Part shown: positions 61,201-63,852 of the stretch, one piece after another
Layout: each line of letters starts with the position of its first letter
Position numbering within the stretch: position 1 is the first letter of the stretch
Origin: Bactericera cockerelli
Lineage: Eukaryota; Arthropoda; Insecta; Hemiptera; Triozidae
Length of the DNA: 64,000 bases
Direction of reading: 5' to 3'
Assembly (NCBI GenBank): GCA_024516035.1
Contig: CM044957.1
Coordinates: forward strand, 46,333,933 to 46,397,932
The notes under the pieces: model-generated
What the model was told of the DNA's origin: nothing
The model's database searches: none
Seen by the model: only the letters and a program-made list of their open reading frames with translations
Program-made: the position numbers and the translations under genes

Positions 61201-63852
61201 TGGAGGTCGGTGGTTCAAGTCCAGGTTTCAGCGTATAGATTTAGTCAAGCGAGTTTGAGTAGATGTGATATCACATAGTTGACTGACACAAATTTGATAA
61301 TTTACATAGTAGGTACATTAGCTACAGATACATAGTACACAGCAACAGATAGGTAAATGAGTATAATAATGAGTATAAACAGAAAAGTGAGAAGTTGTAC
61401 TAGATGTACATGAATATCAGAACATACATGGACAGCTGTTTCGAGCTTATTTGCTCTCATCAGCAGGTAATAGTTCTGAATATCCATGCCATCAACTAAC
61501 CTCTCTTTTTAATGAGTAATTAAAAAGAGTGCATACCTCGGTCTCTCCTCTTCGACATTGGCAATTCTGGCGCACTGAGAGTACCGTCGCTGTCGTACTG
61601 ATCTATCAAGTTGCTTTTCTCCCTCTCAAACTTCACTCTTGCACTGAAAAGAGAATAAATAACTTAGATTAACCTACAAATTATTATTCACCTTCTTTTT
61701 CCCTTCGTAAAATATATTAATTTATTTAATTATTTAGGTACACTTTATTTTTTTCATTTTTTACAAAGCAATCATCAACAACAACAAAAAAAAATAACAA
61801 TAAATTAAAAACAAAAACTTAGAAGTATGTACAAAAAGAAATAAAGATCGATATTAATTTTTAATTACAATTGTTCTGTAATCCGGGGTGAAGTTAATGC
61901 CTTAGGTATTCTCTGCCACTTAACCCCGGATATTTTATTTTACATAATCTTTCATCACAAATAAAAAAACAATATTTCCGATTTCTAATATTAGAAATTT
62001 CTCGGAAGTAATAAAGAACTAAGGGCCGTATTATGAAGCACTGAAGCAGGATTAGCAAATCTAAGCCGACCCTTAGATTTTATCAGCTGACCGATAGGTA
62101 TTCTAAAATAAGATTTTCCGTCACCAAGGCTGGCCACAGCTCCGTTACGTTACAGAGATAATATACAGCTGCAAAGCCCGGCTTAGATATGTTAAGGGAT
62201 AGTGGCAACTGTAGAACTCTACAGTTGTTGTCAAGGTGAAAGTTAACGGATAGTGTCCGCTAAGATAAACAAATCCAGTTTCATAGTCTGGTCCTAAGCC
62301 TTTTCCATCAGGTAGAGTGCCGAGAATGCTGGCAGCATTACCACGCATAAGGGTTGGGTGGAAGAGATTGCCATAGGCAATAACCCCGCCCTTTACTTAG
62401 GACATGTGTATATATTTTGTTTATTTTTTTTTTTGTTTATATTATTAATACTGTCAATTTTTATATTTAATTTTTACCATTATTTGTCTGTATATATCGT
62501 CGTCCCAAACACGAAGTGGCGTATCTTCAAAATACAAACTTTAGTAGCGTAAATCGAGATACGTCAGCTCGTTCTTTGAAAGAAATATTCGAAATAATAT
62601 ACGCCGAAATTAAATATACTCATAAAATTGGAACGCTTTGAGATAGAGATACGCCACTTCGTGAGGTGATAAAAAACCATGATTAGAACTAGATACGCCA
62701 CAAATCCCAAATGTCCATTTTTTGAGATACGCCACTTCGTGTTTAGGACGACGATATGTTCTATTAATAAAGAGTTTCTAAAAAAAAAAAAAATGGCTAA
62801 CCCTACCTGATGGAGAGTTTGCCTCACCTGACGGCGGATGGCAGGGTTGACATGGGCTGCAGCGGCCGATTCGTCACACCCCGCACATCCCGGGGCAGAG
62901 AGTTGGACCGGAGGCCCCGGGTGCCGCCCGTGAACCGCGACAGAGTGGCGGATGATGGCGGCGGCGGCTGGCGGTTGTAGTAGTAGTAGGAAGACCTGGG
63001 AGTAGGGACGTCGATATTATATCGATATTTTGAAATATCGATATTTTGAAATATCGATATTATCGATATTTGGTATCGATACTGAGGTTCCGATAGGGAT
63101 GTCGATATTATATCGATATTTTGAAATATCGATATTTTGGATCCGATATAATCGATATTTGGTATCGATACTGAGGTTCCGATAGTATCGATAATATCGA
63201 GAGAAAAAAATATCGTTATCGAATACCCACACTAAATGGATTAAATTTGCTTGTTTTGTAGGTTAAAATCATTTAATACTGTAAAATAATTCTGATGAGT
63301 TCCAATAAGAACAAAACACGTGTCGTAAGTTGCTTTGTATAGTTCTAATTGATTTTCTGAAATATTGTAATGTATGATTTACAGGTAATTGCATTAATAA
63401 AATAATAATTAATATGATAGGTACAGGTACCTATAGCCTACAACACAATGCACTTAAGACTAAGACACTACCTTAATAGAGTTAATAGCGTGACAGTCGT
63501 GACACCTACACCTAAACTAAACTTATATCCCCATCAGATCTGTTCTATTGAAATTATGAAATAATTAAAATATCGAAGTTCGATGTATCGGAATATCGAT
63601 ACTTTCGTTTCGATAAACATCGGATATCGATACTTTGCTTCCGCGATAGTATCGATATCAAAAATATCGATATTGTGATTCGATGTTGGCATCCCTACCT
63701 GGGAGACGCGGAACAGGTGGCTTCGGTGTCGGAGGCGTAGTCCAGGGGTCTGGGCCGCGCCCTGCAGCCGCTGCTGTAGAGAGAGGCCGGGCCACCAGCT
63801 GGCTTCATGCTGGAGCGCAGGAGGCTCTGCGTGTGCTGACGAGAGGGGGGGC
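51486..63852 (-). CDS. RhoGAP100F: SYD-1/RhoGAP100F/SYDE-type RhoGAP with C2 domain (5' part outside window)
   Basis: Thirteen exons on the minus strand give, in order, a Ser/Pro/Tyr-rich linker (SLYSSGCRARPRPLDYASD, TEATCSASPR), basic segments (VFTADEYRAWMSRAP), a coiled KRIKHLLELEQKHL, a C2 domain (SGLLWVHLLAGRGL through LVFDWDETFELDL to PRGTLYLRLRH), the RhoGAP domain (VPLVVRRCVEEVERRGLDII, arginine finger in LYRLCGS, VLRDYLRELPEPL, KMTPHNLAVCFGP) and a Pro/Ser-rich tail ending ESSETT. In the family this protein organises presynaptic active zones and acts on Rho GTPases. A PDZ domain expected upstream would lie beyond 64000. Three exons (4, 9, 13) are each one base short in a homopolymer, and phases require the missing base in each. 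Between exons 11 and 12 phases do not match and about 30 conserved residues are missing, so one small exon was not found. Confidence 0.92.
52697..52900 (-). CDS. RhoGAP100F: RhoGAP100F exon 12 (end of RhoGAP domain)
   Basis: ATLIFLMDHLALVVSQAARN, KMTPHNLAVCFGPILM and PINVLRYLLEIWPSKSGK. I chose the donor AAA|GTACAG because it joins exon 13 in its long open frame. The alternative CTG|GTAAAG five bases earlier would enter a frame that stops after about 75 codons. Confidence 0.85.
52927..53055. mobile_element. Harbinger-like MITE, 129 bp, 26 bp from a splice acceptor
   Basis: Ends GGGCGAAATTAATCGAC and GTCTATTAATTCCGTCC, TTA on both sides. It lies directly upstream (in gene sense) of the exon 12 acceptor. 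Confidence 0.85.
53385..53470. repeat. 'cttatatccagg' short tandem repeat
   Basis: Four close repeats of 'tctcttatatccagg' or 'tctcttacatcca', related to the pogo-like sequence at 18040-18130. Confidence 0.7.
53538..53655 (-). CDS. RhoGAP100F: RhoGAP100F exon 11
   Basis: GVLRDYLRELPEPLCTKCLY then QMMVDALTVCLQDDPEGTN, the conserved LPEPL helix of RhoGAP domains. Ends in phase 2, while exon 12 begins in phase 0. Confidence 0.93.
53859..53915 (+). pseudogene. LINE ORF2 C-terminal remnant (short)
   Basis: VGNAASVLGSNNEEVFYL then TGA, the very end of the motif seen at 47380-47442. Confidence 0.5.
54231..54350 (-). CDS. RhoGAP100F: RhoGAP100F exon 10 (arginine finger)
   Basis: GLYRLCGSATKKRILREAFE then RNARTADLSPDAVPDINVIT. 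The Arg in YRLCGS is the catalytic arginine finger position. Confidence 0.95.
54610..54957. repeat. SINE family E pieces near exon 9
   Basis: A reversed copy (about 54610-54760, 'catatttgtgtcactttt' to 'caagctactgaggt') and two short opposed 'gacctcagtat(c)ttgatcg' pieces end right at the exon 9 donor. Confidence 0.6.
54962..55107 (-). CDS. RhoGAP100F: RhoGAP100F exon 9 (one base missing)
   Basis: GVFGGELDAVVLRENITG, then, after a one-base shift in the C-run 55054-55057 (G-run in coding sense), IPASMSVHSNVPLVVRRCVE and EVERRGLDIIG. As written it stops at TAG. 146 bases are present and 147 are needed. Confidence 0.9.
55143..55260. mobile_element. Left end of the 14633-type hAT-like MITE
   Basis: 'cgcggccggtgaaaaaatg' and 'tctgaaatgggatttata' match the element at 14633-14892. 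The right end is absent. Confidence 0.65.
55488..55662 (-). CDS. RhoGAP100F: RhoGAP100F exon 8 (end of C2)
   Basis: GSVHMATLLKESPIHQLALK then EPRGTLYLRLRHTDPYHTYL. Phase 0 in, phase 1 out. Confidence 0.93.
55785..55912 (-). repeat. SINE family D copy (truncated)
   Basis: Reversed copy with 'ttattactatgtggtcacaa' and 'actagcgtgttaaacacttg'. Confidence 0.7.
56129..56322 (-). CDS. RhoGAP100F: RhoGAP100F exon 7 (C2 domain core)
   Basis: VGTTRDLYCVLECDRIHKAR, TGDLVFDWDETFELDL and LDFLIYSWDPQYRHKLCYK, a typical C2 beta-sandwich core. Confidence 0.95.
56740..56850 (+). pseudogene. LINE ORF2 C-terminal remnant
   Basis: ISIAIERGNSASGLGTLSSG then DGLGKTYL, followed at once by repeat family G, which may be its 3' UTR. 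Confidence 0.5.
57098..57256 (-). CDS. RhoGAP100F: RhoGAP100F exon 6 (start of C2)
   Basis: EFLKYKIESAKPGTDEAPPV then SGLLWVHLLAGRGLRAQ. Its acceptor (TTCGTTCCAG on the minus strand) is the seed of the array immediately to the right. Confidence 0.95.
57257..58680 (-). repeat. Array of copies of the exon 6 acceptor
   Basis: About 18 copies of 'agaaattctggaacgaag' (minus-strand CTTCGTTCCAG|AATTTCT). Most are spaced 40-44 bases. Four (about 57450, 58150, 58370, 58600) carry a longer piece of exon 6 reaching back to the KPGTD codons, in units of roughly 200 bases with 'tttacacatgggtt(t)aaccc'. Confidence 0.95.
59364..59497 (-). CDS. RhoGAP100F: RhoGAP100F exon 5
   Basis: HADRSTSLKRIKHLLELEQK then HLANSTRDRDLSQDRARVLE, a charged helical linker, likely coiled coil. 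Confidence 0.9.
60332..60530 (-). repeat. SINE family D copy (full length)
   Basis: Reversed full copy, 'cactctttagtggaaagtaa' to 'ttaaccacttgactaccag'. Confidence 0.8.
60656..60907 (-). CDS. RhoGAP100F: RhoGAP100F exon 4 (one base missing)
   Basis: RLTSSPSVFTADEYRAWMSR then, after a shift in the G-run 60841-60844 (C-run in coding sense), SSSAIFDRVRGNTSAAAASS, FTFSAENIPERTRQSELLYN and YRPGHLSAIATLD. 252 bases are present, and intron phases 1 and 2 require 253. Confidence 0.9.
60930..61165 (+). repeat. SINE family F copy
   Basis: Head 'ggtgaaccggttgtgactac', starting about 20 bases upstream (in gene sense) of the exon 4 acceptor. Confidence 0.75.
61193..61300 (+). repeat. SINE family E copy
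   Basis: 'taacctggaggtcggtgg' and 'tttagtcaagcgagtttgag'. Confidence 0.65.
61537..61643 (-). CDS. RhoGAP100F: RhoGAP100F exon 3
   Basis: ARVKFEREKSNLIDQYDSDG then TLSAPELPMSKRRDR. Phases 2 and 1 match both neighbours. Confidence 0.88.
61740..61930 (-). mobile_element. Second LINE 3' end subfamily
   Basis: 'ggggtgaagttaatgcctt' with 'aggtattctctgccactt', the same design as at 22620-22795. Confidence 0.5.
62290..62460. mobile_element. LINE fragments: reversed C-terminus next to a forward 3' hairpin
   Basis: On the minus strand 62348-62290 reads MRGNAASILGTLPDGKGLG. On the plus strand 62360-62400 carries 'gagattgccataggcaata' and 'accccgccctttacttagg'. Confidence 0.55.
62828..62995 (-). CDS. 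RhoGAP100F: RhoGAP100F exon 2
   Basis: SSYYYYNRQPPPPSSATLSR then FTGGTRGLRSNSLPRDVRGV and PMSTLPSAV. Its acceptor is supplied by the 8-bp target duplication of the adjoining transposon. Confidence 0.9.
63003..63697. mobile_element. hAT-like element forming an intron
   Basis: Ends TAGGGACGTCGATAT and, at the right, reverse complement TAGGGATGCCAACAT. Flanked by perfect CCTGGGAG (62995-63002 and 63698-63705). The interior is rich in 'atcgatat' palindromes with no coding frame. Together with one target duplication it makes up the whole 703-bp intron. Confidence 0.9.
63699..63852 (-). CDS. RhoGAP100F: RhoGAP100F exon 1 in window (gene continues beyond 64000)
   Basis: PPSRQHTQSLLRSSMKPAGG, ASLYSSGCRARPRPLDYASD and TEATCSASP. 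It starts in phase 1, so earlier exons exist outside the window. Donor CTCCCAG|GTAGGG. Confidence 0.9.

What the first reader, a model, noticed from the sequence alone, without database searches (positions are those of the whole stretch)
62995..63705. An intron made entirely of a hAT-like transposon plus its target duplication (introner)
On the minus strand the RhoGAP100F intron 63698-62996 is 703 bp: a 695-bp element with TAGGGAYG-type inverted ends plus 8 bp. The flanks are a perfect 8-bp duplication, CTCCCAGG in gene sense. The donor GT is the last G of one duplication copy plus the terminal T of the element. The acceptor AG lies in the other copy. Removing the intron leaves CTCCCAGGTCTTCC, exactly the sequence before insertion, and keeps the frame (ASPRSSYYYY). 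This is the expected signature of intron gain by a DNA transposon, with no other intron sequence present.
Basis: partly seen in the sequence, partly recalled or inferred. Interest (0 to 1): 0.95.

Follow-up and report, generated by a model that had tools for sequence, protein, structure and literature searches.

The report
Transposon-made introns in a psyllid insect
A small jumping DNA element has landed inside protein-coding stretches of several genes of a jumping plant louse and there carries the signals that would let the cell cut it out of the message, so it appears to be making new introns in an insect.

Summary
The 703-bp intron of the SYDE/RhoGAP100F gene is a 695-bp element plus one copy of a perfect 8-bp duplication, CTCCCAGG; removing it restores ...ASPRSSYYYY. 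It belongs to a family: 59 left-end matches in this genome, 0 in the reversed-pattern control, which reduce to 46 separate insertions with a readable flank. Twelve sit in coding sequence where a Pfam domain, a protein of solved structure or homologous proteins run across the joined site (SYDE, Nup155, Nup160, cyclin E, M1 aminopeptidase, GMC oxidoreductase, odorant receptor, Rictor, adaptin, carboxylesterase, DUF4779; Ig weakly). Exact splicing needs AGGT within A+duplication+T: 24 of 46 have it, against 9-10% of background 8-mers. For the GMC gene, 19 paralogue matches in the same genome run through the site uninterrupted; so do seven of seven SYDE homologues found. The host is an insect nearest to psyllids among named hits. 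Best reading: a non-autonomous hAT-like introner family. A 2022 survey (passages read) found introners in only two animal groups and nearly only in aquatic organisms. Splicing itself was not observed, and no transposase partner was found.

The parts
63699..63852 (-). upstream coding exon of the SYDE/RhoGAP100F gene
   Evidence: open frame ...PLDYASDTEATCSASP; acceptor CCCACCCCCAG before it; homologues P0002, P0003, P0124-P0128
63698..63705 (-). target site duplication, copy 1 (CTCCCAGG); its last G is the G of the donor GT
62996..63698 (-). predicted intron, 703 bp (GTAGGG...CTCCCAG)
   Evidence: removal restores the frame; splicing not observed
63003..63697 (-). non-autonomous hAT-like element (introner), 695 bp
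63688..63697 (-). left terminal inverted repeat TAGGGATGCC; its first T completes the donor
63003..63012 (+). right terminal inverted repeat TAGGGACGTC (reads GACGTCCCTA in gene sense); supplies pyrimidines before the acceptor
63094..63185 (+). second copy of the right end (TAGGGATGTC...), a tandem duplication of the terminal part
   Evidence: many relatives match the query only from 1-3 to about 605
62995..63002 (-). target site duplication, copy 2 (CTCCCAGG), holds the acceptor AG
62828..62995 (-). downstream coding exon (RSSYYYYNRQ...SAVR, followed by gtgagg)
56084..56398 (-). region with an exon of the same gene, C2_SYDE domain
   Evidence: Pfam PF25336 E 1e-8
52676..52948 (-). region with an exon of the same gene, RhoGAP domain
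   Evidence: Pfam PF00620 E 3.8e-10

Best explanation
The intron was created in one step when a non-autonomous, hAT-like DNA transposon inserted into a coding exon of the SYDE/RhoGAP100F gene of a psyllid and duplicated 8 bp of target. It is a member of an introner family. Typical elements begin with T(AGGG) and end with (CCCT)A on either strand, so they turn a target whose A+8 bp+T contains AGGT into an intron that the spliceosome can remove without changing the protein. In the common mode (duplication NNNNNAGG) the donor is the last G of the duplication plus the T of the element, and the acceptor AG lies in the second copy. In a second mode (duplication GGTNNNNN) the donor lies in the duplication and the acceptor is the element's last A plus the first G of the duplication. 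Exonic insertions that lack such a target were presumably removed by selection. Shown: the element, duplications, family, exonic positions, restoration of the frame, absence of the intron from GMC paralogues and from the SYDE homologues found. Inferred: transposition by a hAT transposase, actual splicing, selective loss of the others.
For: Anatomy. Family: 59 left ends, control 0; 49 right ends, control 0; 13 exact CAGG+TAGGGATGYC junctions, control 0. Of 46 unique insertions 26 have a perfect 8-bp duplication found by script, 4 have 1-2 mismatches, 16 had no automatic call, some of these resolved by eye. Coding sequence runs across the joined site in 12: Nup155, cyclin E, M1 aminopeptidase, Nup160, DUF4779 and, weakly, Ig, GMC oxidoreductase, odorant receptor 7tm_6, carboxylesterase, Rictor, adaptin, SYDE. 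Rule met: 24 of 46, against 10.4% (GC-rich upstream flank) and 8.7% (other) of background 8-mers; with GC-rich upstream flank (>=0.5) 21 of 26, others 3 of 20, Fisher p 1.6e-5. Absence elsewhere: of 32 match rows for the GMC gene, 4 belong to the two introner copies; 19 of the other 28 run through the intron position in one piece, one read as a 619-aa intronless frame. Seven of seven SYDE homologues found are uninterrupted.
Against: No RNA data, so splicing is inferred. No autonomous partner: none of the 145 hAT dimerisation-domain matches listed (150 of 343 candidates scored) lies between a left and a right end of the family (compared by eye); of the long elements with both ends, one (4.5 kb) was read in large part and holds a nested retrotransposon, and a 4.3-kb one was not fetched. 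Domains were sought mostly at sites already known to meet the rule; four doubtful sites gave no Pfam domain. Five GC-rich sites do not meet the rule. Of the 24 that do, 2 lie at apparent existing donors, 2 in AT-rich DNA, and 2 are unresolved. At the cyclin E site the PDB alignment has a two-residue gap next to the junction, and at the aminopeptidase site a one-residue gap near it. Several duplication pairs differ by 1-2 bases. No introner-free copy was found of the aminopeptidase exons (DNA level) or the SYDE exons in this assembly. The SYDE homologues may come from genomic or RNA contigs, and the query favours uninterrupted ones.
Confidence: 0.92

Rival explanations
1. The insertion is an ordinary, disruptive transposon hit in an exon: a null or partly retained allele in the sequenced insect, with the AGGT overlap a coincidence.
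For: No RNA evidence here; stop codons in all three sense frames of the unspliced DNA.
Against: One such coincidence has about a 10% chance, but all 12 homology-supported exonic insertions meet the rule, several in genes that are essential in model animals (cyclin E, nucleoporins, Rictor: recalled). The aminopeptidase insertion is shared by two gene copies whose exons are 97-98% alike and whose inserts are 2195 and 630 bp, so it has persisted. No empty copy of the SYDE site is held in the assembly, though an assembly need not hold both haplotypes.
Confidence: 0.05
2. The element landed in an older intron, at or beside an existing splice site, and only lengthened it.
For: By sequence, four other insertions seem to sit at or beside existing donors (C8:21314097, C2:1729770, C12:9386221, C11:15772044) and one at an apparent acceptor (L003).
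Against: At the SYDE site nothing remains of the intron once element plus duplication are removed, both sides are coding, and the seven homologues found read straight through.
Confidence: 0.02
3. The copies spread as introns through RNA (reverse splicing), as proposed for fungal introner-like elements, rather than by DNA transposition.
For: Strong presence in exons; proto-splice-site targets.
Against: 8-bp duplications, terminal inverted repeats, both orientations relative to the gene (of the 12, 9 with the left end first and 3 reversed), and many copies in AT-rich flanks with unrelated duplications.
Confidence: 0.02

Closest known systems
Introners (DNA-transposon-derived intron-generating elements; Gozashti et al. 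2022, PMC9860276, passages read; first author recalled)
   Same: Non-autonomous element with inverted repeats and target duplication, many similar copies acting as whole introns, splice sites drawn partly from the duplication, mRNA unchanged.
   Different: Host is an insect; the passages read say that among animals and land plants only two groups (both animals) had introners, and that all lineages except ascomycetes and one blastocyst species (their word) were aquatic. Here about half of the copies lie away from exons.
Maize Ds insertion that made an intron de novo (Giroux et al. 1994; seen only in the reference list of PMC3443670, otherwise recalled)
   Same: hAT element, 8-bp duplication, spliced out of an exon (recalled).
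   Different: Single allele in a plant, not a multi-copy family (recalled).
AGGT transposon-insertion model of intron gain (Yenerall and Zhou 2012, PMC3443670, passages read; author names recalled)
   Same: Predicts this: insertion at AGGT with duplication gives a silent intron; its table lists cases in Oryza, Drosophila, Oikopleura and Zea.
   Different: Here the element itself adds the missing T or A, which widens the usable targets, and does so many times in one genome.
hAT MITEs
   Same: 8-bp duplications, TAGGG/CCCTA ends, short inverted repeats, subterminal repeats; no transposase recognised in the copies read.
   Different: No related transposase found; TATCGATA repeats match the binding site of Drosophila DREF, a BED-finger protein (PMC6179265, passages read).

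Membership tests
Introner (transposon-derived) | many similar copies in one genome, each forming a whole intron in an unrelated gene | tested here: met
   12 homology-supported exonic insertions in different genes out of 46 unique readable insertions
Introner (transposon-derived) | removal restores an uninterrupted coding sequence | tested here: met
   domains and solved proteins align across the joined sites, with small gaps at two of them; GMC paralogues without the intron
Introner (transposon-derived) | copies are efficiently spliced | not testable with these tools
   no RNA data; indirect support from the excess of duplications that meet the rule
Introner (transposon-derived) | target duplication and/or inverted repeats (DNA mechanism) | tested here: met
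hAT superfamily | 8-bp target site duplication | tested here: met
   26 of 46 perfect by script, 4 with 1-2 mismatches, 16 without automatic call, some resolved by eye
hAT superfamily | terminal inverted repeats of the form YARNG (recalled) | tested here: met
   42 of 46 begin TAGGG (the left end was searched by a pattern that starts so, up to 3 mismatches); 23 of 30 with a right end found by script finish CCCTA
hAT superfamily | mobilised by a hAT transposase with the same ends | tested here: inconclusive
   145 hAT matches listed, 150 of 343 candidates scored, none between family ends

The most novel reading that the evidence does not exclude
A hAT-like introner family has gained introns in bulk in a terrestrial insect, in either orientation, because its ends complete AG|GT around proto-splice sites. 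Its insertions also favour exons: only about one exonic site in ten could survive by splicing, yet by my reading roughly half of the copies (22 of 46) lie in or at exons. Its DRE (TATCGATA) arrays may tie it to a DREF-like transposase and bring DREF sites into host genes.
Probability: 0.3. Interest if true: 0.88.

Novelty: new member of a known kind. Interest (0 to 1): 0.78.

Why it matters
How new introns arise is a long-standing question. Introners answer it for some algae, fungi and aquatic protists; the passages read of the 2022 survey stress how rare they are in animals and land plants and link them to aquatic life. A family in a land insect, with the empty state visible in paralogues of the same genome, breaks that pattern. 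It offers a multicellular system where intron gain can be dated, checked for presence and absence between individuals, and tested with reporter constructs. The rule, that A+duplication+T must contain AGGT, is simple and predicts which insertions are tolerated.

Tried and rejected
Autonomous partner: the 4.5-kb element on C1 with family ends proved, over the large part read, to hold a nested non-LTR retrotransposon and another remnant; hAT domain matches listed do not lie inside family ends. Empty copy of the aminopeptidase exons: DNA search found only the two introner-bearing copies. Empty copy of the SYDE exons: only the window's own copy. COX1 to name the species: 16 short matches, no full gene, so no mitochondrial contig recognised. 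Intrinsic target preference for AGG as the whole cause: rejected as sole cause, because low-GC sites show only 3 of 20 that meet the rule. C2:46371864 reads open on both strands, and C8:1939622 with its two C9 copies shows no domain, so neither is counted as a confirmed intron. PDB search with the Nup160 site found nothing. Literature on introners in insects or psyllids: one search found 0 papers; of the papers listed (20 of 88; 40 of 67; 20 of 840; 15 of 25; 12 of 32,356, a badly posed search; 14 of 14; 5 of 5), none reports them by title or abstract start. Subscription papers and bioRxiv are mostly not in that library, and a 2025 follow-up survey of introners is recalled but was not seen.
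Full report
What is there. On the minus strand, two pieces of coding sequence of the SYDE/RhoGAP100F gene (63852-63699 and 62995-62828) are separated by 703 bp that consist of a 695-bp element and one copy of an 8-bp duplication, CTCCCAGG. Removing them leaves CTCCCAGGTCTTCC and the frame ASPRSSYYYY. The gene is identified by Pfam C2_SYDE and RhoGAP matches elsewhere in the window. The right end of this copy is tandemly duplicated. In the assembly these exons occur once, in the two pieces on either side of the element.

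It is a family. A search of the window's genome (G000, 565 Mb, 1032 contigs) with the intron gave 62 matches from the 40 scored of 768 candidates. A 33-base pattern of the left end, up to three mismatches, gave 59 matches and 0 in the reversed control; a 30-base right-end pattern gave 49 and 0. Leaving out one site without fetched flank and one composite site, and merging copies that share flanks, 46 separate insertions remain (one search lists 47, two of which, C8:2727146 and C8:2890746, are copies of each other). Of these, 42 begin TAGGG, as the pattern favours; 26 have a perfect 8-bp duplication found by script, 4 have one or two mismatches, and 16 had no automatic call, some resolved by eye, some with the far flank not fetched. 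A majority sequence of 28 copies is 576 bp, with copies 86-97% like it and nine TATCGATA motifs near the two ends.

Where it sits. Twelve of the 46 lie inside coding sequence supported by homology across the joined site: SYDE (seven homologues), Nup155 (PDB sequences, 6e-16), cyclin E (PDB, 7e-24; Pfam Cyclin_N), M1 aminopeptidase in two gene copies (PDB, 2e-21), Nup160 (7.5e-7, slightly below the curated cut-off), DUF4779 (6e-18) and Ig (7.6e-4, below cut-off), GMC oxidoreductase (2e-16), 7tm_6 odorant receptor (1e-6), carboxylesterase family (1.8e-4, below cut-off; both flanks re-read), Rictor (1e-14) and adaptin (4e-8, below cut-off). The cyclin E alignment has a two-residue gap next to the junction and the aminopeptidase alignment a one-residue gap near it, so an added residue at these sites is not excluded. 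A thirteenth, a MADF protein, is supported on one flank only, with its other junction seen as an exact pattern match. Five others read open but have no domain (C1:6645285, C10:24288225, C1:11500138, C1:9431680, C2:16426271). Four insertions seem to sit at or beside existing donor sites.

How it would work. Whichever strand is transcribed, the typical element starts with T and ends with A. Exact splicing therefore requires AGGT within A+duplication+T. Usually the duplication ends in AGG (CTCCCAGG, CTTCCAGG, CTTCAAGG, CCCGCAGG and so on): donor G|T spans the boundary, and acceptor AG lies in the second copy, preceded by the pyrimidines of CATCCCTA. In the GMC gene (GGTCCGAG) and the odorant receptor (GGTACAAG) the duplication begins with GGT, and the acceptor is made by the element's final A and the first G; in the GMC gene (one of its two copies) and the odorant receptor one copy of the duplication has changed slightly. 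Of the 12, 9 have the left end first in gene sense and 3 the reverse, so either orientation seems to work.

Test against chance. 24 of 46 insertions meet the rule, against 10.4% of 8-mers with GC-rich upstream flanks and 8.7% of the rest in the 290 kb held, elements included. The 24 comprise the 18 exonic sites named above (12, the MADF site and the five without domain), 2 at apparent existing donors, 2 in AT-rich DNA and 2 unresolved. With GC content of the upstream flank as a stand-in for exon, 21 of 26 GC-rich sites meet the rule and 3 of 20 others (Fisher p 1.6e-5). The five GC-rich exceptions are two beside apparent donors (C2:1729770, C11:15772044) and three unclear ones (C10:9135241, C12:6055300, C3:9617107); frames of the first two of these three were scanned without a Pfam match, the third was only read by eye. 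The simplest explanation is that exonic insertions survive only when spliced precisely, which is indirect evidence of splicing. It does not explain why so many copies are in exons at all; an insertion bias towards genes or exons is possible and untested.

Empty sites. In the search with the GMC peptide, 4 of 32 match rows belong to the two introner-bearing copies, which match in separate pieces; 19 of the other 28 run through the intron position in one piece, 2 of these 19 with a stop codon inside. One paralogue, read as a 619-aa frame without introns, aligns across the site without a gap there. For SYDE, the seven homologues found run through the site; three of them (P0124, P0125, P0128) begin with what look to me like intron readings and so are probably genomic. 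One is named Homalodisca vitripennis, the others are unnamed. The query was the joined peptide, which favours uninterrupted proteins. For the aminopeptidase and SYDE exons no empty copy was found in the assembly.

Host. An odorant receptor of the insect 7tm_6 family carries one copy. Among the 120 best of 1720 relatives of a GMC paralogue, the nearest are two unnamed proteins (82-84%), Diaphorina citri (82%) and Cyamophila willieti (82%, over 47% of the query); the next Hemiptera are at 57% and less. The host is thus most likely a psyllid, species not determined.

Known and new. Single transposon-made introns are known, including maize Ds (seen only as a reference) and cases tabulated for Drosophila. 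Introner families are known from 175 of 3,325 genomes in the 2022 survey, whose passages state that among animals and land plants only two groups, both animals, had them and that nearly all hosts are aquatic. The searches, most of them with capped lists, showed no report of introners in insects by title or abstract start. The case is therefore a new member of a known kind in an unexpected host. Membership of hAT rests on duplication length and end sequence; the transposase was not found. The TATCGATA repeats equal the DRE bound by the BED finger of Drosophila DREF (passages); that a DREF-like transposase is involved is only an idea.

Noticed in passing
window 38731-40668 (+): A 646-aa open frame without any Pfam match.
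   Followed up: no
window 63020-63665: All 13 TATCGATA motifs of the window lie in the element; the motif is the DREF binding site.
   Followed up: partly
L038, G000 C8:5745849, 5745903, 5745957: The junction CAGGTAGGGATGCC is repeated three times at 54-bp steps: an introner's 5' end plus duplication amplified in tandem, giving several possible donors.
   Followed up: no
G000, e.g. C2:46371864/46594293, C7:32886653/33458934, C4:18872005/19525195: Several insertion sites occur as pairs 0.2-0.7 Mb apart on one chromosome with shared flanks: segmental duplications or uncollapsed haplotypes.
   Followed up: no
L028 (G000 C1:7593900-7599600): A 4.5-kb copy with both family ends holds a non-LTR retrotransposon frame and a frame that resembles the end of a Tigger transposase (by eye).
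   Followed up: partly
window 25483-26765: A 22-bp tandem repeat of about 59 copies.
   Followed up: no
G000 C8:21314097, C2:1729770, C12:9386221, C11:15772044: Copies inserted at or within a few bases of apparent 5' splice sites, hinting at a preference for exon edges or donor-like sequence.
   Followed up: partly
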